A stretch of 64,000 bases of DNA from Bacteroidales bacterium (GTDB lineage Bacteria; Bacteroidota; Bacteroidia; Bacteroidales; Marinilabiliaceae). The stretch is from positions 62,001 through 126,000 of the forward strand of contig JAKSLH010000002.1 of the NCBI GenBank assembly GCA_024401335.1, written 5' to 3'. Shown here one piece after another: positions 2,175 through 60,993 of the stretch; position 1 is the first letter of the stretch, and each line of letters starts with the position of its first letter. Position numbers and translations under genes: made by a program. Under the pieces are notes generated by a model, which was given only the letters and a program-made list of their open reading frames with translations, did not search any database and had not been told where the DNA came from.

Positions 2175-2191
2175 CAAAACCTGTCAGAAGG

Positions 2192-2899: not shown

Positions 2900-2923
2900 G
2901 AGCTATTCAATAGCTAATATATA

Positions 2924-2960
2924 AGCCAGACAGCGATATGTTGTCTGGCTTTTTGTTTTT
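2924..2960 (+). terminator. Rho-independent terminator after ilvN
   Basis: Perfect 9-bp stem, AGCCAGACA paired with TGTCTGGCT, 9-nt loop, followed by a T-rich run (2951-2960). It ends the ilvDBN transcript. Confidence 0.93.
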
Positions 2961-3305
2961 GGGTATATGTGTAATCTGTTCGTTCTTTGCAACAGGTGTC
3001 TTTAGTCGACAATAAAACCTCATGCGTCCTTACATAAAACCTCCTTTCAATTAGTTTTACTTACAGAAACACCGTTTAAGCGCTCTTCTATTTATAAAAT
3101 GATGTAAAAAGTAACCTTTAGAGTGTAAATTCTTATATTATTTGTTAAATTATTCTCTATATGTTTTCAGTTTTCAAATTAAGTATCTATATTTGTTTCA
3201 AAATATAAACGAAACACCTGATATTTTTTGATATTATAATTAAAACATCAAATATAGGTGCTTATTGAAATGGAAATAATAAGAAAAAACTAATACACTC
3301 AAGTT
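2961..3305. other. AT-rich spacer upstream of gltB
   Basis: No ORF supported. The region is strongly AT-rich and should hold the gltB promoter. A TATATTTG at 3188-3195 fits the Bacteroidota -7 element, but no TTTG lies at the right distance upstream, so the promoter assignment is weak. If used, it gives a leader of about 100 nt. Confidence 0.5.
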
Positions 3306-6300
3306 ATGATGCAAAAACGTTTACCAAAGGCTCAGGGATTATATGATCCGCAAAATGAGCATGACGCGTGCGGTGTCGGTTTTGTAGCCAACATTAAAGG
3401 TGAAAAGACAAACGACATCATTCGTCGTGGCTTACAGGTGAATGTCAACATGACACACCGTGGAGCTGAGGGCGCCGATGACAAGTCGGGTGATGGTGCA
3501 GGTATACTCATGCAGTTGCCTCATGAATTTTTTAAGGCGTTAGTGCCTGATCTTCCTGAAGAGGGTAGATATGCTTCAGGTCTTGTATTTGTTCCTAAGA
3601 ACGAATCGGCCGCACAGAAGTGCATAGAAACATTGAACTCATGCATAGCAAGCGAGGGTCTCGAAGTTATCTGCTATCGTGATGTTCCTGTTAATAGCAG
3701 CTGCGTAGGCGAGATTGCTTTGCGTAACGAACCTCGCATTGTTCAGGTGTTTGTTGCCAGCCATGGCGAAGAGACCGATAAGTTTGAACGTAAGCTTTAC
3801 CTCGTTCGTAAGCAGGCAGAAATAAAGGTTAGAAACAGTAATATCATTGACAAGGAGTCTTACTATGTAGTGTCTCTTTCGTCAAAGACATTCATATATA
3901 AGGGAATGCTTACACCAAGTCAGCTTGGTGAATACTTCCTCGATTTCAAGGACACAAGAATGAAGAGTGCCATCGCTGTGGTTCACTCTCGTTTCTCTAC
4001 TAACACATTCCCTACATGGGATTTGGCTCAGCCTTTCCGTATGTTGGCCCATAACGGTGAGATCAACACAATCCGTGGTAACCGACTCTGGATGCAGGCT
4101 CGTGAGGGTCTTCTCCAGTCCGACCTCTTCGGTGACGACCTTAAGAAGGTGTTCCCTATCGTTGAGCCTAACATGAGTGACTCTGCTTCACTCGATAACG
4201 TATTCGAATTCCTCGTGCAGGCTGGCCGTACATTGCCACATGCGTTGACAATGATGGTGCCTGAATCATGGAACTCCAAGAACCCTATCCCTGACAGCCT
4301 CAAGGCTTATTATGAATACCACTCGACTATCATGGAGCCATGGGATGGCCCTGCTGCTCTCGTATTCACTGATGGTCGTTATGTAGGTGGTACTCTCGAC
4401 CGCAACGGTCTCCGTCCTTCTCGTTATATCATCACTAAGAACGACATGATTGTCATGGGTTCTGAGGTTGGTGTTCAGGTATTTGATCCAGAAGAGATTA
4501 AGGAGAAGGGCCGTCTCCGTCCTGGTAAGCTTCTCCTCGTAGATACTCAGCTCGGTACAATCATCCCTGATGACGAGGCTAAGCTTCAGTTGGCACGTAT
4601 GCATCCTTATGAGAACTGGCTTAAGAACAACCGTTTCTCACTCGATGATATCGAGAGCGAGGTTAAGTCGCCTGTTGCTCTTGTAGGTGATAAATATGAT
4701 GTCTATAAGAAGGTGTTCGGATATAACAAGGAAGACTTCAATGTGACTATCGCTCCAATGGCTAATACTGGCAACGAGCCAGCATCGTCAATGGGTAACG
4801 ATACTCCTATCGCTGCTTTCAGCGATAAGCCACAGAACCTCTTCTTGTATTTCCGCCAGACATTTGCTCAGGTAACCAACCCTCCTATCGACTCTATCCG
4901 TGAGGGTCTTGTGATGTCACTTACTCACTACATCGGTTCTATCCAGGGTAACCTCTTGGCTGAAGAACCACTGCAGTGCCGTACATTGAAGTTCGAGAGC
5001 CCTCTCATTACTAATACCGACCTTGCTAAGATACGTGACGACCGTAACTCATCGTTTACTCATGTCACTATCCCAATGCTCTTCCCTGTAGGTAGCGGCG
5101 GAATAGGTCTCCAGAACGCATTGAAGAGTATCTGCAAGGCTGCAGAAGATGCAGTAGATGCTCAGAAGAACTATATCATCCTCTCTGATAAGGATGTCAA
5201 CGAGTCAATGGCTCCTATACCATCACTTCTTGCAGTGGCTACTGTTCACCATCATCTGATCCGCGCTAAGAAGCGTATGCAGATTGGTATCATCGTTGAG
5301 ACAGGTGATGCTCGTGAAGTGATGCATTTTGCTCTTCTCCTTGGTTATGGTGCTTCTGTTATTAACCCATACTTCGCATTTGCAACTATCTCGCAGATGA
5401 TTAAGGATGGTAAGATACAGGGCGACTATGTTACTGCTCGCGACAACTATATCCATGCTGTTGATAAGGGTATCCTCAAGATCATGTCTAAGATGGGTAT
5501 CTCTACATTGCTCAGCTACCACGGCGCACAGCAGTTTGAGGCTATCGGTATCTCTGAAGAGGTTATCAATACTAGCTTCGCTGGCACTCCATCTAAGATT
5601 GGTGGTGTAGGCTTCAAGGAGATTGCTCAGGAGGTGGAGATGTTCCACAAGAGAGCTTTCGGCGAGCAGGATTTCGCTGCTTCCGATGTGTTCGATATCG
5701 ACGGCCGCTTCGCATACCGTAAGTATGGTGAGAAGCATGGCTGGAATCCAGAGACTATAGCCCTCTTGCAGTGGGCAACTTCACAGAACGACTACTCTAA
5801 GTTCAAGGAGTTCAGTAAGCAGGTTGAAGCCGACAACAAGGCGCCTCTCTTCATCCGCGGCTTCCTCAAGGTTAAGGATGGCGTTGCTATCGACATCAAT
5901 GAGGTTGAAAGTGAAGAAGAGATAATGAAGCGTTTCGTAACAGGTGCTATGTCATTCGGTGCTATCTCTAAGGAGGCACATGAGGCTATGGCTCTTGCGA
6001 TGAATACAATCGGCGGTCGAAGCAACACCGGTGAGGGTGGTGAAGACTCTGCTCGTTTCTCTGGTCCTCTCCGTTCTTCTATCAAGCAGATCGCTTCTGG
6101 CCGTTTCGGTGTGACTAACAACTATCTTGTAAATGCTGATGAGCTTCAGATTAAGATTGCCCAGGGCGCTAAGCCTGGTGAGGGTGGTCAGCTACCAGGC
6201 TTCAAGGTTGATAAGGTGATTGCCAAGATGCGTAACTCAACCCCAGGCATCACTCTTATTTCGCCTCCACCTCATCACGATATCTACTCTATCGAGGACC

Positions 6301-7835
6301 TTGCTCAGCTTATCTTCGACCTCAAGTGTACTAACCCTAAGGCTAAGATTAGTGTTAAGCTCGTTTCTGAGAGTGGTGTAGGTACTATCGCCGCTGGTGT
6401 TGCAAAGGCACATGCCGACCTCATCGTCATCTCTGGTGCTGAAGGTGGTACAGGCGCAAGCCCTGCCTCATCTATCAAGCATGCCGGTCTGCCAGTAGAA
6501 ATTGGTCTCGCTGAGACACAGCAGACTCTTGTGATGAACAACCTCCGTGGTCGTGTTAAGCTCCAGACTGACGGTCAGCTTAAGACTGGTCTCGATGTAA
6601 TAAAGATGGCTTGTCTCGGTGCAGAGGAATATGGCTTTGCAACAGCTGCCTTGATAGTATTGGGCTGTGTCATGATGCGTAAGTGTCACCTCAACACTTG
6701 TCCTACTGGTATCGCTACTCAGGATGAGGAACTCCGTAAGCGTTTCATAGGTAAGTCTGACTATATCATCAACTACTTCCGTTTCATCGCTCGTGAGGTT
6801 CGTGAGACATTGGCACAGATCGGTGCTCGTAGCTTGAGCGAGATCATCGGCCGTACAGATCTTCTTGAGCAGGATAAGAACGTGGGTAACTGGAAGACTG
6901 GTGGCATCGATATGTCACGTATCCTTTACTTCAACGAGGCTGGCAAGCGTTTCTCTATCCTTAACAGCGTTGAACAGCAGCATAAGATTGAAGGCGTAAT
7001 GGATTACGACCTCATCAAGCAGGCTGAAATAGCAATACATGGTGGTCAGAGAGTTTGGATCTCAAAGAACATCAACAACGTTGACCGTACAGTAGGTGCA
7101 ATGCTCTCGGGCGAGATATCTAAGGTTTACGGTGAAGAGGGATTGCCTGAGGATACAATCAATGCAACATTCTTCGGTTCGGCTGGTCAGAGCTTCGGTG
7201 CTTTCTTGGCTAAGGGTGTTACCTTCCGTCTCGAGGGTGAATCAAACGACTACCTCGGTAAGGGTCTTTCTGGTGGTAAGATTATCGTTGTTCCTCCTGT
7301 TGGTAGCAAGTTCGTTCCAGAAAAGAATATCATCACAGGTAATACACTGATGTATGGTGCTACTTCTGGTTTCGTTTCAATTCGTGGTGTCGCAGGTGAA
7401 CGTTTCGCTGTTCGTAACTCTGGTGCAACAGCTGTTGTTGAAGGTGCTGGTGACCACTGCTGTGAATATATGACAGGTGGACGCGTTGTAGTGCTCGGCA
7501 AGACAGGACGTAACTTCGCTGCAGGTATGAGCGGCGGTATCGCTTATGTGCTCGATGAGAATGGTGACTTCGACTACTATTGCAACAAGGGTCTTGTAGA
7601 TCTTTGCAAGATAGAGGATAAGGACGACGTACTCGAGCTTCAGAGCATACTCAACAAGCACTTGCTCTATACTAACTCTGCTAAGTGCCGTACAGTGCTC
7701 TCTAACTGGAGCCGCTATGTGAACAAGTTCGTTAAGGTTATTCCATTCGAATACAAGAAGGTGCTCGAAGAGAAGAAGCTCAAGGAACTTGAGGAGAAGA
7801 TCAAGCACACAGCAGCACCAAACATTCACGAGTAA
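3306..7835 (+). CDS. gltB: Glutamate synthase, large (alpha) subunit
   Basis: Transfers the glutamine amide to 2-oxoglutarate; together with GltD it makes two glutamates. The 1509-residue length is normal. A short propeptide precedes the Ntn-type nucleophile Cys22 (HDACGVGF), which implies cleavage before this Cys. The glutaminase domain is followed by the central domain and the FMN-binding synthase domain (GEGGEDSARF, PGEGGQLPG, SGAEGGTGASP). The 3Fe-4S ligands are Cys1121, Cys1127 and Cys1132. A C-terminal beta-helix domain ends the protein. gltD follows after 94 bp with a hairpin in the gap. Confidence 0.97.
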   Translation: MMQKRLPKAQGLYDPQNEHDACGVGFVANIKGEKTNDIIRRGLQVNVNMTHRGAEGADDKSGDGAGILMQLPHEFFKALVPDLPEEGRYASGLVFVPKNESAAQKCIETLNSCIASEGLEVICYRDVPVNSSCVGEIALRNEPRIVQVFVASHGEETDKFERKLYLVRKQAEIKVRNSNIIDKESYYVVSLSSKTFIYKGMLTPSQLGEYFLDFKDTRMKSAIAVVHSRFSTNTFPTWDLAQPFRMLAHNGEINTIRGNRLWMQAREGLLQSDLFGDDLKKVFPIVEPNMSDSASLDNVFEFLVQAGRTLPHALTMMVPESWNSKNPIPDSLKAYYEYHSTIMEPWDGPAALVFTDGRYVGGTLDRNGLRPSRYIITKNDMIVMGSEVGVQVFDPEEIKEKGRLRPGKLLLVDTQLGTIIPDDEAKLQLARMHPYENWLKNNRFSLDDIESEVKSPVALVGDKYDVYKKVFGYNKEDFNVTIAPMANTGNEPASSMGNDTPIAAFSDKPQNLFLYFRQTFAQVTNPPIDSIREGLVMSLTHYIGSIQGNLLAEEPLQCRTLKFESPLITNTDLAKIRDDRNSSFTHVTIPMLFPVGSGGIGLQNALKSICKAAEDAVDAQKNYIILSDKDVNESMAPIPSLLAVATVHHHLIRAKKRMQIGIIVETGDAREVMHFALLLGYGASVINPYFAFATISQMIKDGKIQGDYVTARDNYIHAVDKGILKIMSKMGISTLLSYHGAQQFEAIGISEEVINTSFAGTPSKIGGVGFKEIAQEVEMFHKRAFGEQDFAASDVFDIDGRFAYRKYGEKHGWNPETIALLQWATSQNDYSKFKEFSKQVEADNKAPLFIRGFLKVKDGVAIDINEVESEEEIMKRFVTGAMSFGAISKEAHEAMALAMNTIGGRSNTGEGGEDSARFSGPLRSSIKQIASGRFGVTNNYLVNADELQIKIAQGAKPGEGGQLPGFKVDKVIAKMRNSTPGITLISPPPHHDIYSIEDLAQLIFDLKCTNPKAKISVKLVSESGVGTIAAGVAKAHADLIVISGAEGGTGASPASSIKHAGLPVEIGLAETQQTLVMNNLRGRVKLQTDGQLKTGLDVIKMACLGAEEYGFATAALIVLGCVMMRKCHLNTCPTGIATQDEELRKRFIGKSDYIINYFRFIAREVRETLAQIGARSLSEIIGRTDLLEQDKNVGNWKTGGIDMSRILYFNEAGKRFSILNSVEQQHKIEGVMDYDLIKQAEIAIHGGQRVWISKNINNVDRTVGAMLSGEISKVYGEEGLPEDTINATFFGSAGQSFGAFLAKGVTFRLEGESNDYLGKGLSGGKIIVVPPVGSKFVPEKNIITGNTLMYGATSGFVSIRGVAGERFAVRNSGATAVVEGAGDHCCEYMTGGRVVVLGKTGRNFAAGMSGGIAYVLDENGDFDYYCNKGLVDLCKIEDKDDVLELQSILNKHLLYTNSAKCRTVLSNWSRYVNKFVKVIPFEYKKVLEEKKLKELEEKIKHTAAPNIHE

Positions 7836-7871
7836 TTGACAAATTAATTAAAAATCCGGATTATGGTTGAG

Positions 7872-7898
7872 GTGAGAGTCCTTGACAAAGGCTCTCAC
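7872..7898 (+). other. Intercistronic hairpin between gltB and gltD
   Basis: GTGAGAG pairs with CTCTCAC (7 bp), extended inside by CCTT/AAGG after one mismatch. No T-run follows, so it is not a typical terminator. It may protect or process the mRNA end and set the GltB:GltD ratio. Confidence 0.55.
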
Positions 7899-7929
7899 TC
7901 TTAAACCAAAATTCTTAATTATAAAGATC

Positions 7930-9360
7930 ATGGGAGATCCACGAGGATTTATGAAAGTCGAGCGCAAAGAGGGTGGCTACCGTCCACTTGCTGAGCGCAT
8001 AGAAGACTATAGCGAGGTTGAACAGACCTTGAATGAAAACGACAGAATGCTCCAGGCATCACGCTGTATGGATTGCGGTGTGCCTTTCTGCCACTGGGCT
8101 TGCCCACTTGGCAATAAGACTCCTGAATGGCAGGATGCTGCATACAAAGGTGACTGGGAGCTTGCATATAACATATTACACTCTACAAGTAACTTCCCTG
8201 AGTTTACTGGCCGAATCTGCCCTGCTCTTTGTGAGAAGTCATGTACATTGGCTGTTCACAACGAGGCGGTGACAATTCGCGAGAACGAGGCTGCTGTTGC
8301 TGAGCATGCTTTCAATCTCGGCATCGTGAAGCCACGCATACCAGCAAAGCGCACTGGCAAGAAGGTGGCTGTTATCGGTGGTGGCCCTGCAGGTCTGGCT
8401 TGTGCCGACTTGCTTAACCAGGCTGGTCACTCGGTGACTGTATTTGAAAAGAACAATGCCGTGGGCGGTCTTCTCCGCTATGGTATTCCTGACTTCAAGC
8501 TCTCTAAGAAGGTTATCGACCGCCGTGTGGCTGTGTTGACTGCTGAAGGCATCACTTTCAAGGTTAACCAGGAGGTTGGTGTTAACATGAAGCTCGATAA
8601 GATCAAGAAGGAGTTCGACGCCATCGTTGTTACTATCGGTGCTGGTCAGCCTCGCGACCTTAAGGTTGAGGGCCGTGAATTGAAGGGTGTTCATTTCGCT
8701 CTTGAGTTCCTCCAGCAGCAGAACCATGTGGTTCGCGGTGATGAGGTTAAGGATAAGGACCGCATTCTTGCAACAGGTAAGCCTGTTCTTGTAATCGGTG
8801 GTGGTGATACGGGTTCCGACTGTGTGGGTACTTCTAATCGTCAGAAGGCTCGCTCTGTTATGCAGATCGAGATCATGCCTAAGCCTCCAGTTGACCGCGC
8901 TCCTGGCAACCCATGGCCTTACTGGCCAAATGTCCTCAAGACTACATCTAGCCACAAGGAAGGTTGCGACCGTCGTTGGTTGCTCAACACAAAGCGTTTC
9001 ATTGGTGACGACCAGGGCAATGTGAAGAAGGTTGAGCTCGTAGAGGTGGAATGGAAGAAGGATGCGGCAACAGGCCGTATGCAGATGGTTGAAAAGCCTG
9101 ATTCTACATTCCAGGTTGATGCAGAACTCGTTCTTCTCTGTATGGGCTTTGTGTCTCCAGTACATGAGGGTCTTGTCAACGAACTTGGCGTTGAGTTCGA
9201 CGCACGTGGCAACATCAAGGTCGATGCCAACGGCATGTCTAGCGTTGAAGGTGTGTTCGCTGCTGGCGACGCTGCAACAGGCGCTTCACTCGTTGTTCGT
9301 GCAATAGCTCGCGGTCGTGAGACTGCTAAGGGCGTTCACGAATGGCTCATGAAGAAGTAG
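7930..9360 (+). CDS. gltD: Glutamate synthase, small (beta) subunit
   Basis: FAD/NADPH-binding partner of GltB that feeds electrons to the large subunit. I start at the ATG at 7930 (MGDPRGFMKV), the family-typical start, giving 476 residues; an upstream TTG at 7882 adds unrelated residues encoded by the intercistronic hairpin. The N-terminal Fe-S domain has Cys46, Cys49, Cys54 and Cys58 (CMDCGVPFCHWAC) and a second cluster CPALCEKSC. Two nucleotide-binding motifs follow (VIGGGPAGLACADLL and VIGGGDTGSDCVGTS). A strong terminator lies just downstream. Confidence 0.97.
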   Translation: MGDPRGFMKVERKEGGYRPLAERIEDYSEVEQTLNENDRMLQASRCMDCGVPFCHWACPLGNKTPEWQDAAYKGDWELAYNILHSTSNFPEFTGRICPALCEKSCTLAVHNEAVTIRENEAAVAEHAFNLGIVKPRIPAKRTGKKVAVIGGGPAGLACADLLNQAGHSVTVFEKNNAVGGLLRYGIPDFKLSKKVIDRRVAVLTAEGITFKVNQEVGVNMKLDKIKKEFDAIVVTIGAGQPRDLKVEGRELKGVHFALEFLQQQNHVVRGDEVKDKDRILATGKPVLVIGGGDTGSDCVGTSNRQKARSVMQIEIMPKPPVDRAPGNPWPYWPNVLKTTSSHKEGCDRRWLLNTKRFIGDDQGNVKKVELVEVEWKKDAATGRMQMVEKPDSTFQVDAELVLLCMGFVSPVHEGLVNELGVEFDARGNIKVDANGMSSVEGVFAAGDAATGASLVVRAIARGRETAKGVHEWLMKK

Positions 9361-9390
9361 AAAAACAATTCATCATAACAATTTGAGTAT

Positions 9391-9438
9391 ATTCCACCCA
9401 TTCTAGGGCCGTTGAGGTTCCGGAATGGGTGGAATTTT
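9391..9438 (+). terminator. Rho-independent terminator after gltD
   Basis: Perfect 13-bp stem: ATTCCACCCATTC (9391-9403) pairs with GAATGGGTGGAAT (9423-9435), ending in a short T-run. This T-run also supplies the -33 TTTG of the next promoter. Confidence 0.93.
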
Positions 9439-9466
9439 GCATATTATTAATTTCTGCGTACATTTG
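9436..9466 (+). promoter_or_regulatory. Bacteroidota-type promoter of the ACP-dependent operon
   Basis: TTTG (9436-9439), 19-nt spacer, TACATTTG (9459-9466). This matches the consensus TTTG-N19-21-TAnnTTTG. Transcription should begin near 9471, about 15 nt before the first gene of the operon. Confidence 0.75.
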
Positions 9467-9486
9467 TATCCAAATAGTTTTGACTT

Positions 9487-9912
9487 ATGAAAGAACCTGT
9501 AGTTAGTGGTGCAGATATCTGCAAATACATACCACAGCGTCAGCCTATCGTGATGCTGGATTCTTTTTATGGCGTTGAAGACAATGCCTCTGTTTCAGCT
9601 TTGACAGTGCTACCTGACAACCTCTTCGTAGAGGATGGACACATGGTGGATAGCGGCATCATCGAGCATATCGCTCAGAGTGGTGCTATGCGTCTGGGTT
9701 ATGAGAGCGTAAGCAAGGGTGAGCCTGTGAAGTTGGGACTTATCGGTTCGGTAAATAAACTCACAATAGATAGATTGCCTAATGTTGGCGAGACAATGGT
9801 GACAACCATAGTCTTCGAGGCTCAGATTGGCGACGTTACTCTTATGGGAGCGACAGTCAAGGTGGGCGATGAGGTCATTGCTCAGGGCAAGATGAAGGTG
9901 GCTACAAAATAA
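9487..9912 (+). CDS. FabZ/ApeP-like hotdog-fold 3-hydroxyacyl-ACP dehydratase
   Basis: First gene of a seven-gene operon. The 141-residue length is that of a single hotdog domain. YIPQRQPIVMLDSF near residue 14 resembles the FabZ start. DGHMVDSGIIEHIAQSGAMRLGY (His52, Glu60) corresponds to the FabZ active-site helix, but with a shorter loop between His and Glu, more like the dehydratases of aryl-polyene clusters. The rest is a beta-rich hotdog sheet ending AQGKMKV. It is inferred to remove water from 3-hydroxyacyl-ACP intermediates carried by the ACP at 12041. No ketoreductase is encoded nearby, so that activity would have to come from elsewhere. Confidence 0.8.
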   Translation: MKEPVVSGADICKYIPQRQPIVMLDSFYGVEDNASVSALTVLPDNLFVEDGHMVDSGIIEHIAQSGAMRLGYESVSKGEPVKLGLIGSVNKLTIDRLPNVGETMVTTIVFEAQIGDVTLMGATVKVGDEVIAQGKMKVATK

Positions 9913-9923
9913 CTGACATTCAG

Positions 9924-10373
9924 ATGGCTAAGAGGCAGAAGATGAGAGAAGCAGCACTGACATGCAGGAAGGAGATTCTTGTGCGTTTCAGTGATGTTGA
10001 CGCTATGAAGGTGGCTTGGCACGGATCTTATGTGGCCTATCTCGAAGATGCTCGTGAAGCATTTGGAATAGAGTTCCCTGAGGGATTGGGATATGCCGAC
10101 TATTTCCGCTCAGGCTATGTTGCGCCTGTTGTCAATCTGAATATCAACTATAAGCAATCTCTGCGTTGTGGTGATACAGCAATAGTGGAGATCCGTTATA
10201 TTCCTACCGAAGCGGCTAAGATTATTTTCGAATATATCATATATCGCAAGTCCGATATGGCCATTATGGCTACAGCTGAGACTACACAGGTGTTCACTAC
10301 CTACGAGGGGGAAATGCAATATACATGTCCTGATTTTTTCGTCAAGTGGAAGGAGAAGTGGCTTAACAAGTAA
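9924..10373 (+). CDS. YbgC/FadM-type acyl-CoA/ACP thioesterase
   Basis: 149 residues, hotdog fold. RFSDVDAMKVAWHGSYVAYLEDAREAF (residues 21-47) matches the 4-hydroxybenzoyl-CoA thioesterase family signature, with the active-site acidic region at Asp24-Asp26 and His33 in the usual positions. The family hydrolyses acyl thioesters. In this operon it probably releases or edits the chain made by the ketosynthases. It lies 11 bp after the dehydratase gene and 18 bp before the ketosynthase gene, so the three are co-transcribed. Confidence 0.82.
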   Translation: MAKRQKMREAALTCRKEILVRFSDVDAMKVAWHGSYVAYLEDAREAFGIEFPEGLGYADYFRSGYVAPVVNLNINYKQSLRCGDTAIVEIRYIPTEAAKIIFEYIIYRKSDMAIMATAETTQVFTTYEGEMQYTCPDFFVKWKEKWLNK

Positions 10374-10391
10374 GCTGAGACAAAGAGGGGA

Positions 10392-12041
10392 ATGGTGAAG
10401 TCGGTGAATACATATCTGGGAAAGACGGCAATATGGACAGGTTTGGGCTTTGGTGTTGTTGACAACTATGAGAAGATGCTCAAGGGTGTCACCGGACTTC
10501 AAAGGATAGACATAGAGGGAGATGGTCAGCATTCTCGTCTGGAGAGGATGATGATAAGGGTGATTGAAGAGGTGAAACCGGGTATCGACATGACCTCTGA
10601 ACGCACAGCTATGTTGTTTTCTACGACAAAAGGTAACATTGCCAATCTTGGTATAGAGTGCCCTGAAGAGGGTAGCGATGTTTACCTGCATAAGATGGCT
10701 AGCAGAGTCTGTAAGGCTGTCGGTTTTGTTGGAAAGCCTATTGTAGTATCAAATGCGTGCATCTCTGGTGTTGTGGCGGTAGTGCTTGCTCAGCGACTGA
10801 TAAACGCAGGAAGATATGATGATATAATCGTTGTTGGTGGTGATGAGATGACAGAGTTCACGACAAGTGGATTCATGGCATTCAAATCGGTAAGTGAACA
10901 ACCTTGCAGGCCTTATGACGCTAAACGTGACGGTTTGTCACTTGGTGAAGCTGCAGGTGCAGTGGTTGTCAGCAACGACAGAAAGAAATCACATGGAATA
11001 GTCGTGGCAGGTGGCTCTATGAGCAATGATGCCAACCATATAAGTGGACCTTCGCGCACTGGAGAGCCTTTGGCAGAAGCCATAAGACAGGCAATGGGTG
11101 AACCGGGTATAGCGAATGATGATATCTCATTTGTCAATGCTCATGGAACAGCCACTGTCTATAACGATGAGATGGAGTCGAAGGCTATAAATCTGGCTGG
11201 TCTGCAGGATAAGCCGTTGAATAGCCTTAAGCCATATATAGGTCATACCTTAGGTGCCTCAGGACTTGTTGAGATAGCTATTGCGGCAGAAGAACTGCGT
11301 CATGGCATGGTGATCGGTACAAAGGGTTTTGAGACTCTCGGTACACCAATGCCGTTGAATGTAAGCGCTGAAAACCGCAGTGTGACGATGAAGCATTGCG
11401 TGAAGAGCGCATCGGGCTTTGGCGGTTGTAATGCGGCGGTTGTCCTTTCTCTAGAAGAATATTCAAAGGAGCGAGCTGTCCCTTCAATGACTGATGTGAA
11501 GTGTCTTCATAGATGCACTATGAAGAATGGCGAACTGAGTGTTGATGGCGAACTGGTGGTTAAGTCTGAAGCTGATTTCGGAACGTTTGCACGTGACGTA
11601 TATCATAGGCAGGACGCTAATATGAAGTTTTTCAAGATGACTGATATGTGCAAGATGGGTTATCTGGCATCCAACTATGTGCTGAAGGATGTTGACTATA
11701 AGCCTTACGACATAGCGATAGTGATGTCGAATAAAAGCTCTTCTCTTGATGCTGATCTGACACACTGGCGTATCCAGAAAAGAGACAACCAGCCTGCTAG
11801 TCCGGCGGCTTTTGTCTATACATTGCCTAATATCGTCATGGGCGAGATAGCTATAAAGAATGGCATAAAGGGCGAGACGACTTTCTTGGTGACAGATAGC
11901 AAGAATGATGAGACAGCAAAAGACTATGCTCGACTGCTGTTGTCGGAAGGAAGATACAAATACGTACTTACCGGATGGTGCGAATTGCTTGAAGGTAACT
12001 ATGAACTAGATATAGAACTGTTAACAACAAAATTTAACTGA
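10392..12041 (+). CDS. Beta-ketoacyl-ACP synthase fused to a C-terminal half ketosynthase domain
   Basis: Residues about 1-360 form a ketosynthase with the full catalytic triad: Cys123 (SNACISG), His251 (NAHGTAT) and His285 (IGHTLGASG). The ending SASGFGGCNAAVV is family-typical. The other 190 residues are extra. They resemble the N-terminal half of a thiolase-fold protein (KMGYLASNYVLKD, IAIVMSNKSSSLDAD, LPNIVMGEIAIKNG), but no Cys sits where the nucleophile would be. The same kind of half domain is encoded alone at 13474. The 549-residue length is well above the usual 400-420. The stop overlaps the ACP start (TGATG), which suggests translational coupling. Role inferred: chain elongation on the ACP. 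Confidence 0.82.
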   Translation: MVKSVNTYLGKTAIWTGLGFGVVDNYEKMLKGVTGLQRIDIEGDGQHSRLERMMIRVIEEVKPGIDMTSERTAMLFSTTKGNIANLGIECPEEGSDVYLHKMASRVCKAVGFVGKPIVVSNACISGVVAVVLAQRLINAGRYDDIIVVGGDEMTEFTTSGFMAFKSVSEQPCRPYDAKRDGLSLGEAAGAVVVSNDRKKSHGIVVAGGSMSNDANHISGPSRTGEPLAEAIRQAMGEPGIANDDISFVNAHGTATVYNDEMESKAINLAGLQDKPLNSLKPYIGHTLGASGLVEIAIAAEELRHGMVIGTKGFETLGTPMPLNVSAENRSVTMKHCVKSASGFGGCNAAVVLSLEEYSKERAVPSMTDVKCLHRCTMKNGELSVDGELVVKSEADFGTFARDVYHRQDANMKFFKMTDMCKMGYLASNYVLKDVDYKPYDIAIVMSNKSSSLDADLTHWRIQKRDNQPASPAAFVYTLPNIVMGEIAIKNGIKGETTFLVTDSKNDETAKDYARLLLSEGRYKYVLTGWCELLEGNYELDIELLTTKFN

Positions 12042-12295
12042 TGGAAGAATTGAAGACACAGCTTAAGCAGCAGATTATCGATGCTCTTAACCTTGAAGAT
12101 ATAACACCAGCTGACATCGACAATGAAGCTCCATTGTTCGGTGATGGACTCGGACTTGACTCTATTGATGCATTGGAGATCATCCTCATCTTGGAGAGCA
12201 ACTATGGTATTCATATTGCTAATGCTGGTGAAGCTCGACCATTGTTCAAGTCGATCAATACTTTGGCTGACTTTGTAGCGGCCAACAAGAAATAA
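12041..12295 (+). CDS. Acyl carrier protein
   Basis: 84 acidic residues with the phosphopantetheine site GLGLDSIDALEI (Ser41). It starts inside the stop codon of the ketosynthase gene and is dedicated to this operon by position. No phosphopantetheinyl transferase or malonyl transferase lies nearby, so these activities must be supplied from elsewhere in the genome. Confidence 0.93.
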   Translation: MEELKTQLKQQIIDALNLEDITPADIDNEAPLFGDGLGLDSIDALEIILILESNYGIHIANAGEARPLFKSINTLADFVAANKK

Positions 12296-12307
12296 CGGTT
12301 GTTCTCA

Positions 12308-13477
12308 ATGATTAGCGTTACAGGTATAGGAATAGTTTCTGCACTTGGAGTGGGCGTTGAAGCCAACTTGGCATCTTTGCGTCAGGGGAAAGACGGAATA
12401 GGTAAAGTGGATAACTTCAAGACTACTATCGATGTGCCTGTGGGTGAATTGAAGTTGAGCAACAAGGAACTCCAACGTCGATTGGGGTTGGATGAGAGGG
12501 AAGTGGTTTCACGCACCTCTTTGCTTGGTATGCTTGCCGCAAAAGAGGCATTGGAGGATGCTGGCATACGCGATAGATGCCAGGTAGCATTTATATCATC
12601 TACAACGGTAGGTGGTATGGATCTGACACCGACATTCTACAGGGATTATATGGCTGACAGTAGCAAGGGGCATTTGCGTTATGTCTCACAACATGATTGC
12701 GCCTCTAGCACTAATGCTATAGCTGATTTCTGTGGTATTGGTGGTTTCAGGACTGCTATAAGTACTGCCTGTTCATCTGCAGCTAACGCATTGATGATGG
12801 GAGCTCGCATGATAGAGCAGGGATTGGTTGATGTCGCAGTGGTTGGCGGTACTGATGCTCTGTGCGCATATACACTCGATGGATTCAAGTCTCTTATGAT
12901 TCTTGATGTCGAGAAATGCCGTCCTTTTGATGAGTCGAGAGCCGGACTAAACCTTGGTGAAGCAGCTGCTTATATTGTGCTGCAACGTTCAGATATAGCT
13001 TCTAAATCATATTGTACGCTCGCTGGCTACGGCAATGCTAACGACGCCTATCACCAGACTGCTGTCAGCGCGGAAGGACATGGCCCGAGAATGGCTATGG
13101 AGATGGCGTTGGAGAAGGCTGGATTGAAACCTGCAGATATAAGCTATATCAATGCGCATGGTACGGGAACGCCTAATAACGACGCGTCGGAATCGGCTGC
13201 CATGAAGGCTATTTGGGGTGATAAGGTCCCTAGTTTCAGTTCTACAAAATCATTCACCGGACATACTCTTGCCGCTGCGGGCGCTATAGAGGCGGTGTTC
13301 TCTATATTGGCCATCAAGCATCAGCAGATATGGGGCAACTTGAACTATACGACTCCTATCGCTGGACTCGACTTGGTGCCTGTGACCGAGACCTGCTCGT
13401 ACGAGGTGAATGCGGTGCTGTCTAACTCATTCGGGTTTGGAGGTAACTGCTCATCAGTAATATTCTCACGCCTATGA
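12308..13477 (+). CDS. Beta-ketoacyl-ACP synthase (FabF-like)
   Basis: I start at the ATG at 12308 (MISVTGIGIVSALG), the usual ketosynthase start; a TTG three codons earlier is less likely. The 389-residue length is normal for a single ketosynthase. The triad is intact: Cys155 (STACSSAANA), His284 (NAHGTGTPNND) and His319 (FTGHTLAAAG), with the C-terminal SNSFGFGGNCSSVIFS loop. It is the second complete condensing enzyme of the operon. Its stop overlaps the next start by four bases (ATGA). With the half ketosynthase next to it, it may form a KS/chain-length-factor-like pair. Confidence 0.88.
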   Translation: MISVTGIGIVSALGVGVEANLASLRQGKDGIGKVDNFKTTIDVPVGELKLSNKELQRRLGLDEREVVSRTSLLGMLAAKEALEDAGIRDRCQVAFISSTTVGGMDLTPTFYRDYMADSSKGHLRYVSQHDCASSTNAIADFCGIGGFRTAISTACSSAANALMMGARMIEQGLVDVAVVGGTDALCAYTLDGFKSLMILDVEKCRPFDESRAGLNLGEAAAYIVLQRSDIASKSYCTLAGYGNANDAYHQTAVSAEGHGPRMAMEMALEKAGLKPADISYINAHGTGTPNNDASESAAMKAIWGDKVPSFSSTKSFTGHTLAAAGAIEAVFSILAIKHQQIWGNLNYTTPIAGLDLVPVTETCSYEVNAVLSNSFGFGGNCSSVIFSRL

Positions 13478-14106
13478 AGACCATCTATATTAATGCGATG
13501 ACGGTATATAACGCTGAATGGGATTTGAAGACTCTTATCCCTGATGCTAATATGCGCCGCAGAATGAGCCGTTTTATCAAGATGGGCGTCGCTACTGGTC
13601 TTAAATGTCTTCAGGAGGCTGGGGTGGAGTCGCCCGACTCTATAATAACGGCTACTGCCTACGGATGCCTCGCTGATAGCGAGAAGTTCCTCTCTTCTGC
13701 TTTGGCGTCTGACGAACAGATGCTGCCTCCTACTCCGTTTATTCAGTCCACTTTCAACACTATGGGTAGCCAGATAGCTATTCTTACTGGTTGCCATGGA
13801 TATAACATGACTTTTGTCGACCGACAGAGAAGCTTTGCTGACGCTCTTGTTGATGCCTGCCTCGAGATTGGCGATGGCAAGCATAATGTGCTGCTTGGCT
13901 ATGCCGACGAGATGACGCCTACGCTTGGCGCTATTCTCAATAGAATGGGCCGTGCTGCCAACAATATGCCACACGAGGATTGCGCATGGTTCTTCCTCTT
14001 GTCCGATGTGAGGAACGAGCATACTATAGCTGCTCTCGACGACCTCTCTCTCAGCAAGATCATGGGCTATGGGTCGGTTCACGACTTTATCGCTGCCATC
14101 CGATGA
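13474..14106 (+). CDS. Stand-alone half ketosynthase (beta-ketoacyl synthase N-terminal-like)
   Basis: 210 residues, about half a ketosynthase. MSRFIKMGVATGLKCLQEAG, TATAYGCLADSEKFL and PPTPFIQSTFNTMGSQIAIL follow the order of a thiolase-fold N-terminal half. Where condensing enzymes have the nucleophilic Cys, this reads FNTMGS. The His-bearing C-terminal half is missing. It is therefore unlikely to condense by itself and may act as a structural or chain-length partner. Similar short ketosynthase-like proteins occur in aryl-polyene gene clusters. It overlaps both neighbours by four bases, so translation is coupled. Confidence 0.75.
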   Translation: MKTIYINAMTVYNAEWDLKTLIPDANMRRRMSRFIKMGVATGLKCLQEAGVESPDSIITATAYGCLADSEKFLSSALASDEQMLPPTPFIQSTFNTMGSQIAILTGCHGYNMTFVDRQRSFADALVDACLEIGDGKHNVLLGYADEMTPTLGAILNRMGRAANNMPHEDCAWFFLLSDVRNEHTIAALDDLSLSKIMGYGSVHDFIAAIR

Positions 14107-14774
14107 TCATCGCCATCGTTGCCATATTGCTGTTCATTGTGCTGGCGCGTGAGGTATATGCTGCTACGCATATCCAGGCTGGCTTCTATATCAAGCCTAT
14201 CTGCACTACTGATGGCCATGGGGTACTTCTTACCTTCGACGATGGTCCAAATGTGAAAAATACGCCTAAGGTGCTCGAGGTCCTTAGGAGATACAACGCA
14301 AAGGCTGTCTTCTTCTGCATAGGTGGTGAGGCGGAGAAATATCCCGACATTGTTAAGCAGATCATCTCTGAGGGTCACATGATAGGTCAGCATACCTACT
14401 GCCACAATCCTTTTCATAGTTTCTTTAGTAGTAGCAGATATCTTAGCGAACTACAGCAGGCTCACGGCGTTTTTGCCCGTCTGGGTGTCGATATCAAGCT
14501 GTTCCGTCCTCCGTTGGGCATCACCAATGTGATGATCAAGAGGGCAGTGGAGCAGATGGGATACCTTACGATGGCCTGGTCGGTGAGGTCGTTCGACACT
14601 CGTAGCGAGAGCAGAGCCAAGGTCATAAGTAGGGTAGTCGATAAGATGCAGAGCGACAGCATCATATTACTTCATGATAGGATGGACGATGCTGATATTG
14701 TGGCAGAAGAGATAATAAAGGAGATAACTAATAGGGGATGGACATTGTGCAATCCCCATAATATAAATCTATAA
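14103..14774 (+). CDS. Membrane-anchored NodB-type (CE4) polysaccharide deacetylase family protein
   Basis: The ATG at 14103 overlaps the previous stop (ATGA) and gives 223 residues starting with a hydrophobic anchor (residues 1-20). A longer frame upstream is only the neighbour read out of frame. CE4 motifs are present: TFDDGP (Asp46, Asp47), HTYCH metal ligands (His98, His102), RPPLG at 136-140 and LLHD at 190-193. The family removes acetyl groups from sugars using a divalent metal, outside the cytoplasmic membrane. Its place as the last gene of an acyl-assembly operon suggests the substrate may be a glycolipid or sugar-linked product. Confidence 0.85.
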   Translation: MIIAIVAILLFIVLAREVYAATHIQAGFYIKPICTTDGHGVLLTFDDGPNVKNTPKVLEVLRRYNAKAVFFCIGGEAEKYPDIVKQIISEGHMIGQHTYCHNPFHSFFSSSRYLSELQQAHGVFARLGVDIKLFRPPLGITNVMIKRAVEQMGYLTMAWSVRSFDTRSESRAKVISRVVDKMQSDSIILLHDRMDDADIVAEEIIKEITNRGWTLCNPHNINL

Positions 14775-14785
14775 AACAGTAAACA

Positions 14786-15043
14786 ATGAAATATCAATAC
14801 AGAACACAGGGCACTTGCAGCCAGATGATCACATTAGATGTTGAAGACAATATCGTGAAGTCTGTCGAATTCTTTGGTGGCTGCCATGGCAATCTTCAAG
14901 GCATAGCAAAACTCGTTGAAGGCATGAAGACCGAAGATGTCATCGCTCGCCTAGAAGGCATCAACTGCGGTGGCAAAGGCACATCCTGCCCCGACCAGCT
15001 TAGCAAAGCCCTCAAAGCGATTGCTGAGCAAGCCAACAAATAG
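14786..15043 (+). CDS. TSCPD-domain protein (TIGR03905-like)
   Basis: 85 residues. CxxM near the start, GGCHGNLQGIAKLVEGM, and the C-terminal GTSCPDQLSKAL are the hallmarks of the TSCPD family, a domain also found at the end of some ribonucleotide reductases. The free-standing version has no established function; the conserved cysteines suggest metal or redox chemistry. It begins 11 bp after the deacetylase gene, so it could be on the same transcript, but nothing ties it to acyl assembly. Confidence 0.85.
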   Translation: MKYQYRTQGTCSQMITLDVEDNIVKSVEFFGGCHGNLQGIAKLVEGMKTEDVIARLEGINCGGKGTSCPDQLSKALKAIAEQANK

Positions 15044-15108
15044 GGTCAGAATGAGTGGGAGGATAATGTGGAAAACAAAAAACAGCACTTCAAAAGTGTA
15101 TATCGCGA

Positions 15109-15306
15109 ATGCTTGATTCTACATCAATAGACGCATTATCACGTATCGGATCACTGCACTTTGAAAACTTAAAAGGTGACAAAGAAGGTATATCATCCAT
15201 TAGAGTTAATCTTCAATATCGAATAGAGTTCACAGTGGATAGAAACGAGGAAGATACGAAGCTAACTATATGTAATATTTTAGATTTATCCAATCACTAT
15301 AAATAG
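15109..15306 (+). CDS. HigB-like toxin, N-terminally truncated
   Basis: 65 residues matching the C-terminal two thirds of RelE/ParE-type HigB toxins (LHFENLKGDKEGISSIRVNLQYRIEF, ending NILDLSNHYK). Family members are about 100 residues. The first strand and helix (roughly 35 residues) are not found in any frame upstream, where only about 65 bp separate it from the TSCPD stop. The frame is open back to 15067 (reads LQKCISRMLDST), so part of the old N-terminus remains without a start codon. No clear ribosome binding site precedes 15109. Probably inactive; the intact antitoxin gene follows 7 bp later. Confidence 0.7.
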   Translation: MLDSTSIDALSRIGSLHFENLKGDKEGISSIRVNLQYRIEFTVDRNEEDTKLTICNILDLSNHYK

Positions 15307-15313
15307 AAGCACA

Positions 15314-15667
15314 ATGGACAACAAATTGCAAAACATACCATCAGACATGATTGCTAATAATCTTCATGTAAACAATCCTGTTCATCCTGGGGAGGTGATA
15401 AAGGATGAAATGGAGTATTTGGGTTTTTCACAGAAGAGATTGTCCGAGGCAACAGGTATTTCATATACCATCATCAATGAGATAGTACATGGCAAACGTC
15501 AAGTGACTGTGGAATATGCTATGTTATTTGAAGCAACGATGAATCTCGAGGCCGAAATGCTTTTGAATATGCAGATGCGTTACAATAAAGAGATAGTATT
15601 GAAGAACAATAGCTTTATTGAGCGCCTAAAGAAGGCTCGCAACTTTGCCGCTAGCGTTACTCTCTAA
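15314..15667 (+). CDS. higA: HigA-family antitoxin, XRE helix-turn-helix
   Basis: 117 residues. VHPGEVIKDEMEYLGFSQKRLSEATGISYTIINEIVHGKR (residues 27-66) is the HigA-type helix-turn-helix with the characteristic HPGE motif. HigA neutralises the neighbouring mRNA interferase and represses its own operon. The toxin-first order (toxin 15109, antitoxin 15314) is typical of higBA. The antitoxin looks complete even though the toxin is shortened. Confidence 0.88.
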   Translation: MDNKLQNIPSDMIANNLHVNNPVHPGEVIKDEMEYLGFSQKRLSEATGISYTIINEIVHGKRQVTVEYAMLFEATMNLEAEMLLNMQMRYNKEIVLKNNSFIERLKKARNFAASVTL

Positions 15668-15843
15668 AACATATTCAGCCTTCTGTGAGTCATAAATACG
15701 CTGAAACTCACAGAGTTCCGTCCCTCTTCCTATTGTTGTAGCTGTGATGTCTTGTGTCACTATTCTGCCACAAACACCATTTTCACCACTCTTCCGGCAA
15801 AATAGTGATAGTTCTACGCTATCCATTCCTCCATGAAAACAAC
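15668..15843. other. Spacer with one unassigned minus-strand reading frame
   Basis: A minus-strand frame (15626-15826, 66 codons) reads through here and overlaps the end of higA. It has no recognisable domain and no clear ribosome binding site. It may be chance or a gene remnant in this toxin-antitoxin area. Confidence 0.3.
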
Positions 15844-15894: not shown

Positions 15895-16171
15895 TCATTT
15901 GTCATTATAATGACCTAACATTTGAAGTATATTCACACACACAATGTCATCGTGGACTGAATATACTATTCTATCTTTCCCGTTTAGGCGACGTGAATAT
16001 GTATTGGCTCGTCTTCTCAATAGCTCGGGATTGCCTATTCCAGTTGTTGGGTGTTCCATCAACTCTTGGAGAATTATTTGCAATTTTTTCAGTGCTGACT
16101 TGTTCCCTGATTATTTTGATCCTTTCCAAATCATTAAGTGCCCTTGGGGCGAACACCAGTCTATAATTCAT
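15895..16171 (-). pseudogene. YoeB-type toxin broken by a +1 frameshift
   Basis: The N-terminus reads MNYRLVFAPRALNDLERIK from 16171 in one frame. The remainder reads SGNKSALKKLQIILQELMEH, then SRRLNGKDRIVYSVHDD and GHYNDK in the next frame, ending at 15895. Joined, these give a complete Txe/YoeB toxin of normal length. The break is at about 16111-16117, where minus-strand AAAATAATC has one base more than needed (AAAAAATC would restore IKKSGNKS). YoeB toxins cut mRNA at the ribosome. The antitoxin gene upstream overlaps the toxin start by four bases (ATGA) and looks intact. Confidence 0.82.
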
Positions 16172-16395
16172 GACAACAATGTTGTTAACTCCTCAATGCT
16201 GTTTATCGACTTCCCTTTGCCTTTTGCTATATCCTCTTCGGCCATGTCTATATCTTTGTAAAAAGCAGAAGACTCATAGTATTCGTTTTTTTCGACTTCC
16301 CATCCCATAGCCTTAGCAATCCCCTTAAGACGCTTGAAATCGACCTTAGGGATGTTAATTATATACGACTCCATATTTATTCTCACATTTTCCAT
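16168..16395 (-). CDS. Antitoxin partner of the broken YoeB-type toxin
   Basis: 75 residues from the ATG at 16395; a second ATG at 16374 (MESYIINIPK) is possible. IPKVDFKRLKGIAKAMGWEVEK and the acidic, flexible C-terminus (DMAEEDIAKGKGKSINSIEEL) are typical of small antitoxins paired with YoeB/RelE-type toxins in Bacteroidales. Assignment rests on the four-base overlap with the toxin. A promoter matching the phylum consensus lies 30-60 bp upstream, so it is probably still expressed. Confidence 0.75.
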   Translation of the reverse strand: MENVRINMESYIINIPKVDFKRLKGIAKAMGWEVEKNEYYESSAFYKDIDMAEEDIAKGKGKSINSIEELTTLLS

Positions 16396-53110: not shown

Positions 53111-53166
53111 TTGTGTAACATACGCATATTAATATCGTATCTAGCATTAACTCAGATAGTATTGAA

Positions 53167-54765: not shown

Positions 54766-54778
54766 CTTTCTATATTAT

Positions 54779-55282: not shown

Positions 55283-55300
55283 ATTAAGTTGATTGTTTCT

Positions 55301-55810: not shown

Positions 55811-55854
55811 AATTGTACGTTTTCTTAAAGCTTATCCAAAAACTATGCCAACAA

Positions 55855-59204: not shown

Positions 59205-59220
59205 ATTGTCTCTTTTTTTC

Positions 59221-60027: not shown

Positions 60028-60101
60028 GTTTTCTTCTAAAAACAACAGCTCCCCTTCAACAAGACGGCATCCTGCCAATGCGTCTGTTTCAGTTCACTGC
60101 T

Positions 60102-60989: not shown

Positions 60990-60993
60990 ACTG

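What the first reader, a model, noticed from the sequence alone, without database searches (positions are those of the whole stretch)
9487..14774. Compact seven-gene ACP-dependent operon, possible undescribed acyl product
Seen: dehydratase, thioesterase, KS+half-KS, ACP, KS, half-KS, membrane deacetylase, in one direction, spaced 18 bp or less with three stop/start overlaps, behind a near-consensus promoter and a terminator. Known: half-KS proteins and ApeP-like dehydratases occur in aryl-polyene/flexirubin clusters. Missing: ketoreductase, malonyl transferase, PPTase, acyl starter ligase, ammonia-lyase, methyltransferase, outer-membrane export. Inference: a reduced relative of those pathways that borrows reductase and PPTase from fatty acid synthesis, makes a short acyl chain, and may attach it to a sugar (deacetylase).
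Basis: partly seen in the sequence, partly recalled or inferred. Interest (0 to 1): 0.75.

Follow-up and report, generated by a model that had tools for sequence, protein, structure and literature searches.

The report
Scattered flexirubin-type polyene pigment genes
The seven genes are intact and are the chain-building part of a known kind of pathway for yellow-orange membrane pigments (aryl polyenes such as flexirubin); they look incomplete only because most of the rest of the pathway lies elsewhere in the same genome, beginning about 500 bases past the end of the window.

Summary
The operon is real: seven open genes at 9487-14774, gaps of 18 bp or less, three stop/start overlaps. It is not a reduced pathway. 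In several relatives the same genes, in the same order, sit inside complete flexirubin-type aryl-polyene clusters. In this genome that row is cut into in-order pieces: the window operon (elongation); FlxB ketoreductase-ACP-acyltransferase-FlxJ methyltransferase about 0.5 kb past the window end; LolA-ApeI-like dehydratase-glycosyltransferase-MMPL/PlsC exporter on contig C29; and an operon on C9 with the third ketosynthase and a CrtI-like oxidoreductase. FlxB passes its cut-off in 25 of 26 genomes with the block and 0 of 35 without it. The half-KS model best matches ApeC, the aryl-polyene chain-length factor; the fused KS/half-KS best matches a KS-CLF didomain. The ketosynthases lie apart from the genus's housekeeping FabF. 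The deacetylase is a known part of flexirubin clusters. Only the tyrosine ammonia-lyase FlxA was not found, in an 84.6%-complete assembly; 17 of 79 near-complete FlxB-bearing genomes of the order also lack a strong FlxA match, so another starter supply is possible. A known kind of system, unusually dispersed.

The parts
9487..9912 (+). ApeP-like hot-dog dehydratase subunit; lacks the FabZ-type GHFP motif, so probably works with an ApeI-like partner encoded elsewhere
   Evidence: PF22817 20 bits (below cut-off 27), FabZ models 29-34 bits, far below cut-off; motif comparison; very weak match to 6qsr_B (E 0.076), which I take from memory to be ApeP
9924..10373 (+). 4HBT-family acyl thioesterase
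   Evidence: PF13279 50 bits, above cut-off; second gene of the block in most neighbourhoods read
10392..12041 (+). ketosynthase fused to a C-terminal half-KS (KS-CLF didomain); C123, H251, H285 invariant in 16 aligned rows
   Evidence: AlphaFold pLDDT 92; best PDB match 6riw PfaC KS-CLF over 745 columns; the C-terminal part is a separate gene in L003, L052, L053
12041..12295 (+). acyl carrier protein with a DSI phosphopantetheine site
   Evidence: NF006617 84 bits above cut-off 70; PF00550 above cut-off
12299..13477 (+). ApeO-type elongating ketosynthase (start more likely ATG 12308)
   Evidence: best NCBIfam match NF006618/PRK09185 318.7 bits (below its cut-off 407), 6qsp_A ApeO fifth among PDB sequence matches; own branch apart from FabF
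13474..14106 (+). half-ketosynthase = ApeC-type chain-length factor; no Cys at the position aligned with the KS nucleophile
   Evidence: PF13723 48 bits above cut-off 25; model pLDDT 87, best PDB match by E-value 6qsp_B ApeC, TM 0.63; column check
14103..14774 (+). membrane-anchored (by eye) NodB-family polysaccharide deacetylase, FlxP-like
   Evidence: PF01522 102 bits; flxP in the C. pinensis flexirubin cluster; same place in full clusters
14786..15043 (+). TSCPD-domain protein, possibly the last gene of the same operon; no known role in the pathway
   Evidence: TIGR03905 124.7 bits above cut-off; next labelled gene after the deacetylase in L034, L036, L037
9396..9430 (+). hairpin followed by a short T-rich stretch; probable terminator of upstream gltD rather than part of the operon
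   Evidence: fold -20.8 kcal/mol; not listed by the terminator scan

Best explanation
The operon is the elongation arm of a flexirubin-type aryl-polyene pathway whose genes, clustered in several relatives, are here cut into several intact, in-order pieces. Proposed working: an aromatic starter (in flexirubin producers p-coumarate made from tyrosine by FlxA) is loaded on an ACP; the two KS-CLF pairs (fused KS/half-KS at 10392-12041, and KS plus ApeC-like half-KS at 12299-14106), with the KS on contig C9, condense it with malonyl units; FlxB (0.5 kb past the window end) reduces each keto group; the ApeP-like subunit of the operon, which lacks the FabZ-type GHFP motif, pairs with an ApeI-like protein (contigs C29 and C9) to dehydrate, giving a conjugated polyene; FlxJ methylates it; the thioesterase helps release; acyltransferases attach the polyene carboxylate to a membrane lipid; and the deacetylase, glycosyltransferase, LolA and MMPL/PlsC proteins prepare and export it to the outer membrane. 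Shown here: gene content, order in relatives, co-occurrence, predicted folds, motifs, clade membership. Inferred: all catalytic steps, substrates and the product.
For: Same genes in the same order inside complete clusters, for example L052: HAL-SDR-KSa-ACP-LPLAT-OMT | DH-TE-KS(+half)-ACP-KS-halfKS-DEAC | LolA-ApeI-GT-MMPL; likewise L043, L045, L046, L053. In the window's genome the segments SDR-ACP-LPLAT-OMT (L090), DH...DEAC (window) and LolA-ApeI-GT-MMPL (L077) are contiguous in-order pieces of that row. FlxB 382/340 bits, FlxJ 628/560, LolA2_flexi 120/125. FlxB over cut-off in 25 of 26 block-positive and 0 of 35 block-negative genomes (Fisher p 3e-16, relatedness ignored). KSa-type KS at E<=1e-110 to the C9 protein in 25 of 26 and 0 of 35; the C9 KS nests with in-cluster KSa proteins. 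Half-KS best matches ApeC 6qsp_B; [quoted passage not shown] Flexirubin cluster content incl. deacetylase (PMC3992019).
Against: FlxA not found in this assembly, and no starter ligase was identified. None of the seven operon proteins is itself named by an NCBIfam Flx model, and several models are met only below their curated cut-offs (PRK09185 KS, ApeP-like, ApeI-like, LolA2). The half-KS was linked to ApeC by fold only, not by sequence, and full-length KS and CLF chains reach similar or higher TM-scores. Dialkylresorcinol genes (darA/darB), needed for flexirubin proper, were not searched for. No expression or chemistry. C9 carries duplicate dehydratases, exporter and LolA, so it may serve a second product.
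Confidence: 0.83

Rival explanations
1. One reading: a self-standing reduced pathway that takes its ketoreductase and PPTase from fatty acid synthesis and makes a short acyl chain for transfer to a sugar.
For: Within the window itself no ketoreductase, methyltransferase or exporter of the relatives' clusters is matched (E <= 1e-10). Only one PPTase match in the genome, so the PPTase is probably shared.
Against: FlxB passes its curated cut-off in this genome and in 25 of 26 block-positive genomes, and in none of 35 block-negative ones; further functions are encoded elsewhere in the genome in the order of the full clusters.
Confidence: 0.05
2. A decaying remnant of a full cluster.
For: FlxA is not found in this assembly; homologues sit in full clusters.
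Against: All seven frames are open, and the fused KS keeps its invariant C, H, H; the segments past the window end, on C29 and on C9 are also open frames. FlxB also lies far from the block or on another contig in 10 of the 14 congeners.
Confidence: 0.05
3. Two related pathways coexist: the C9 operon (KSa, ACP, ApeP-like, ApeI-like, MMPL, CrtI-like, LolA) makes a second polyene or lipid, and the window operon works only with the FlxB and C29 loci. (Compatible with most of the best explanation.)
For: C9 has its own ApeP, ApeI, MMPL and LolA, which occur once each in the stretches of the five full clusters read; G001, G004, G005, G011 and G017 hold a second, more divergent KSa besides the one nearest to C9's.
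Against: In G000 the C9 KSa is the only KSa-type match at E <= 1e-110 and tracks the block, 25 of 26 against 0 of 35; it belongs to the in-cluster KSa group.
Confidence: 0.25

Closest known systems
Flexirubin biosynthesis cluster of Chitinophaga pinensis (flxA-flxY) and Flavobacterium johnsoniae (PMC3992019)
   Same: Several ketosynthases, dehydratases, thioesterases and reductases; polysaccharide deacetylase (FlxP), acyltransferase, LolA, glycosyltransferase and exporter; FlxB and FlxJ models met; phylum Bacteroidota
   Different: Here dispersed over at least four loci; FlxA not found; resorcinol genes not searched for. (In C. pinensis the resorcinol genes already lie apart from flxA-Y.)
Aryl-polyene (APE) clusters of E. 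coli CFT073, Xenorhabdus doucetiae and Acinetobacter baumannii (PMC8253772, PMC8358021; passages)
   Same: ApeO-ApeC KS with half-size CLF, a further FabB-like KS (ApeR; the C9 KS likewise scores best against a FabB model, under its cut-off), ApeI- and ApeP-type dehydratases (their pairing is recalled), two ACPs, LolA-like and RND-type export, acyltransferases
   Different: APE starts from 4-hydroxybenzoate via ApeH and is one cluster; here a second KS-CLF pair is fused in one protein, and there is a deacetylase, which the part of the E. coli gene list that I saw (D-R) does not have
PfaC KS-CLF didomain (PDB 6riw)
   Same: The fused KS/half-KS aligns over 745 columns, TM-score 0.78 by query length; single KS chains reach about 0.59
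   Different: Recalled: PfaC has a full-length CLF and belongs to polyunsaturated fatty acid synthases; the CLF here is about half size

Membership tests
Flexirubin-type / aryl-polyene biosynthesis pathway | KS with half-size, nucleophile-free chain-length factor (ApeO-ApeC type) | tested here: met
   PF13723 above cut-off; fold match to ApeC 6qsp_B; no Cys at the column aligned with the nucleophile in 15 of 15 rows (position taken from the pairwise alignment; a Cys 11 residues upstream in 9 of 15 rows is not conserved). The KS model PRK09185 is the best match but under its cut-off
Flexirubin-type / aryl-polyene biosynthesis pathway | Dedicated ketoreductase FlxB | tested here: met
   NF053542 382 bits over cut-off 340, about 0.5 kb past the window end
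Flexirubin-type / aryl-polyene biosynthesis pathway | ApeI- and ApeP-type dehydratases | tested here: inconclusive
   ApeP-like in the operon and on C9, ApeI-like on C29 and C9 by homology, but the Pfam scores obtained are under the curated cut-offs (the C29 ApeI-like protein was not scanned)
Flexirubin-type / aryl-polyene biosynthesis pathway | Aryl-starter supply by FlxA tyrosine ammonia-lyase | tested here: not met
   No match in G000, an 84.6%-complete assembly, so absence is not proven; 17 of 79 near-complete FlxB-positive genomes also have no match at E <= 1e-120
Flexirubin-type / aryl-polyene biosynthesis pathway | Acyltransferase, glycosyltransferase, LolA and MMPL exporter | tested here: met
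   L090 LPLAT; L077 LolA, GT2-DUF2062, MMPL-PlsC, all over their Pfam cut-offs; LolA2_flexi just under its NCBIfam cut-off
Flexirubin (strict sense) | Dialkylresorcinol moiety made by darA/darB and esterified to the polyene | not tested
Flexirubin (strict sense) | Yellow-orange pigment with colour shift in alkali | not testable with these tools
   needs culture and chemistry
Housekeeping type II fatty acid synthase (FabF/FabB) | Ketosynthases fall in the FabF clade | tested here: not met
   Tree of 45 ketosynthases: KSfus, KS2, KSa and FabF (eight FabF, all of this genus) each one side of a supported branch; FabF and FabB NCBIfam cut-offs not reached

The most novel reading that the evidence does not exclude
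In this and other Bacteroidales lineages the aryl-polyene pathway has lost its tyrosine ammonia-lyase and is primed by an aromatic acid taken from outside, for example p-coumarate set free from plant cell walls in the gut, so that pigment making depends on diet or neighbours; the pathway's dispersal into separate operons would allow that supply step to be lost on its own.
Probability: 0.18. Interest if true: 0.55.

Novelty: new member of a known kind. Interest (0 to 1): 0.3.

Why it matters
It shows how a window-sized view, or a cluster finder that expects contiguous genes, can turn an ordinary pathway into a seemingly novel reduced one. It documents a flexirubin-type pathway dispersed over at least four loci in a Bacteroidales genus (one congener, G014, appears to be the reindeer MAG, since contig length and genes agree). 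And it isolates one question that can be tested directly: how the roughly one in five FlxB-bearing genomes without a strong FlxA match obtain their aromatic starter.

Tried and rejected
Considered and rejected: a short-chain acyl-sugar pathway (FlxB found); a remnant (open frames, conserved residues); housekeeping FabF/FabB identity; the deacetylase as a sign of novelty (FlxP in PMC3992019). A single-protein scan of genome contigs gave only two loci, one of which, L003, first showed the block inside a fuller cluster. Sequence search of the half-KS against PDB gave only marginal FabF matches (best E 0.0056); the fold search was needed. Ten genes were scanned for a starter enzyme, five beside the block of G008 (L047), four beside that of G054 (L044) and the one before FlxB in G000: housekeeping families or no match. 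Both G008 and G054 lack a FlxA match.

Papers: searches listed no paper that I recognised, from titles and starts of abstracts, as reporting dispersed flexirubin loci or FlxA-less aryl-polyene pathways in Bacteroidales; two searches showed 15 of 35 and 10 of 23 papers. The library holds open-licence papers only. Aryl-polyene clusters in rumen genomes, Prevotella among them, are already reported (PMC8241843, passages).

Limits: relatedness is ignored in the Fisher tests. Block-positive means a match of the fused KS at E <= 1e-30 and includes the window's own genome. The 79 genomes are those with at least 96% completeness among the 117 listed (116 over the cut-off, G000 included); the other 38 were left out because of an 80-handle limit and lower completeness. 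They were chosen by FlxB, not by the KS block, and one search shows only matches at E <= 1e-120, so a more distant ammonia-lyase could hide below it. The count of genus genomes with FlxB on another contig (8 of 15) may include breaks of assembly. The ORF tables are mechanical, with ORFs filtered by overlap. Rows dropped before structure prediction: from the half-KS alignment one near-duplicate (L039), with two rows trimmed to a later start; from the fused-KS alignment L039 and L034 (the latter holds masked letters). The identification of 6qsr_B as ApeP is recalled.
Full report
Observation. The window is contig C12:62001-126000 of a 2.7 Mb, 33-contig, 84.6%-complete genome. The seven genes are as described: ApeP-like dehydratase, 4HBT thioesterase, KS with a C-terminal half-KS, ACP, KS, half-KS and NodB-type deacetylase, all on the + strand, with gaps of at most 18 bp and three overlaps. 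A TSCPD gene follows 11 bp after the deacetylase; a homologue is the next labelled gene after it, on the same strand, in L034, L036 and L037, so the transcript may hold eight genes. The claimed promoter and terminator were not supported by the consensus scan, which does not cover Bacteroidota-type promoters. A hairpin of -20.8 kcal/mol at 9396-9430 looks like the end of gltD.

What it sits in elsewhere. A homologue of the fused KS occurs in 26 of the 61 genomes of the relatives panel (15 of 15 of the genus, this genome included, and 11 of 46 others). I fetched 20 neighbourhoods and labelled their ORFs with proteins of the window, L003, L035 and L043. All seven gene types lie in order in 13 of 20; the other seven (L035, L036, L047-L051) are partial, split or rearranged. 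In L043, L045, L046, L052 and L053 the operon's genes lie in one run with an ammonia-lyase (HAL), SDR, KSa, ACP and LPLAT on one side and LolA, an ApeI-like dehydratase, a GT2 and an MMPL exporter on the other; a methyltransferase (L046, L052, L053) or a B12 radical-SAM protein (L043, L045) lies between LPLAT and the dehydratase. L003 (a named Bacteroidetes MAG), L040, L041 and L042 show parts of the same row. The block stands apart from these genes in L034 and L037, with the methyltransferase alone beside it in L038 and L039. NCBIfam names the HAL FlxA (864 bits for L043, cut-off 700). The published C. pinensis flexirubin cluster has the same kinds of genes, including a polysaccharide deacetylase FlxP followed by acyltransferase, LolA, glycosyltransferase and exporter genes (PMC3992019; abstract and sections 4 and 8 read).

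Where the 'missing' genes are. In the window's own genome, C12:126477-129551 (window coordinates 64477-67551, about 0.5 kb beyond the window end and 50 kb from the operon) encodes FlxB (NF053542, 382 bits, cut-off 340), an ACP, an LPLAT and a FlxJ-family methyltransferase (NF053543, 628 bits, cut-off 560). Contig C29 encodes LolA (LolA2_flexi 120 bits, cut-off 125), an ApeI-like dehydratase with the GHFP motif, GT2-DUF2062 and an MMPL exporter fused to a PlsC acyltransferase. Contig C9 encodes a KSa, ACP, ApeP-like and ApeI-like dehydratases, a second MMPL, a CrtI-like oxidoreductase and a second LolA. The first two and the window operon are contiguous, in-order segments of the full cluster row. 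One PPTase match was found (PF01648). None of the seven operon proteins is itself named by an Flx model of NCBIfam.

Are they one pathway? FlxB passes its cut-off in 25 of 26 block-positive genomes (the exception, G027, is 72% complete) and in 0 of 35 block-negative ones. A KSa-type KS at E <= 1e-110 to the C9 protein is found in 25 of 26 and 0 of 35; in G022, G029, G030, G034, G056 and G057 the match is the KS inside or beside the block itself. FlxA passes its cut-off in 16 of 61 genomes, all block-positive; G027 has a partial match at a contig end, and nine block-positive genomes (G000, G001, G004, G007-G011, G054) have none. Fisher p-values are 3e-16 for FlxB and 3e-8 for FlxA, without correction for relatedness. 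Of the 14 named control genomes one, Bacteroides ihuae, matches PF13723, FlxB and FlxA over the cut-offs. Within the genus FlxB lies within about 5 kb of the fused KS in 4 of 15 genomes (G005, G006, G012, G013), on the same contig but about 54-92 kb away in 3 (G000, G001, G009), and on another contig in 8, some of which may be assembly breaks. In the wider sample, where FlxA was found, it starts within 5 kb of FlxB in 52 of 62 genomes, 25-27 kb away on the same contig in 2 and on another contig in 8, so dispersal of this pair is the less common state. C. pinensis itself keeps its resorcinol genes apart from flxA-Y.

Mechanism. The half-KS was modelled with 14 aligned sequences (pLDDT 87); its best PDB match by E-value (5e-10, TM 0.63) is 6qsp_B, ApeC, the chain-length factor of the Xenorhabdus aryl-polyene synthase; full-length KS and CLF chains follow with similar TM-scores, up to 0.70. 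[quoted passage not shown] The residue aligned with the KS nucleophile is not Cys in any of 15 rows; a Cys 11 residues upstream is present in 9 of 15 and not conserved (alignment). The fused protein (16 sequences, pLDDT 92) best matches the KS-CLF didomain of PfaC (6riw; 745 columns, TM-score 0.78 by query length, against about 0.59 for single KS chains); its KS half keeps C123, H251 and H285 in 16 of 16 rows, and its C-terminal half is a separate gene in L003, L052 and L053. Conversely KS2 and its half-KS are fused in L040 and L083. Fusion in some genomes and separation in others supports two KS-CLF pairs. The operon's dehydratase lacks the GHFP motif, while the ApeI-like proteins of C29 and C9 carry it, so the operon alone probably cannot dehydrate. 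A tree of 45 ketosynthases (eight of them FabF of this genus) puts the two operon KS types, the KSa type and FabF each on its own supported branch, and the C9 KS of this genome inside the KSa group. The C9 KS scores best against the FabB model PRK07967 (367 bits, cut-off 630); the ApeR of APE clusters is likewise called FabB-like (PMC8358021).

Open point. FlxA was not found in this genome. Of 392 genomes drawn from the order with a completeness limit of 90%, 116 pass the FlxB cut-off, this genome included. Of the 79 of these with at least 96% completeness, 62 have FlxA over its cut-off and 17 have no match at E <= 1e-120; the 17 fall in 12 families, in 10 of which sampled relatives do have it. 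Loss, or replacement by another enzyme or an outside source of aromatic acid, is therefore likely in part of the order; for the window's genome an assembly gap remains possible. No starter ligase was identified, and ten genes beside such loci gave no candidate.

Literature. Passages were seen of PMC8253772 (E. coli APE genes), PMC8358021, PMC9248904 (flexirubin clusters across Bacteroidetes), PMC8241843 (2,800 aryl-polyene clusters among 14,814 of rumen genomes), PMC5383146 (antiSMASH table with flexirubin for Bacteroidales bins), PMC12144888 and PMC10904984. Aryl-polyene and flexirubin-type clusters in Bacteroidota, rumen Prevotella included, are thus known as a class.

Verdict. An ordinary, intact elongation module of a flexirubin-type aryl-polyene pathway, dispersed over several loci. 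Best explanation 0.83; interest 0.3. The most novel reading not excluded is a FlxA-less pathway fed with outside aromatic acids (0.18).

Noticed in passing
L090 (G000:C12:124001-144000) 2477-5551: A second flexirubin-type operon, FlxB-ACP-LPLAT-FlxJ, begins about 500 bp beyond the window end, past a gene that looks like ilvC.
   Followed up: yes
L079 (G014:C34) 1516-15731: The close relative G014 holds a second, divergent KS/half-KS/ACP set on a contig that also carries its FlxA; its role is unknown.
   Followed up: no
window 50996-54162 and L002 175-3311: A 704-aa helicase-like gene and a polysaccharide-deacetylase-like gene are neighbours both in the window (51-54 kb) and a few genes upstream of the flexirubin block in L002/G014, although in the window they lie 36 kb from the block.
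   Followed up: no
window 15895-16395 (-) and 15109-15667 (+): Two small toxin-antitoxin-like gene pairs next to the operon (recognised by eye); the RelE/YoeB-like one appears to be spread over two overlapping frames.
   Followed up: no
L035 12173-19769 and window 54256-62352: In G005 part of the flexirubin cluster sits next to an mpl-NAD kinase-uppS-bamA-ompH block; the same block is in the window without it, next to an ilvC-like gene and close to the FlxB operon.
   Followed up: partly
window 14786-15043: A TSCPD-domain (TIGR03905, four Cys) gene follows the deacetylase here and in three congeners; no role in polyene making is known to me.
   Followed up: partly
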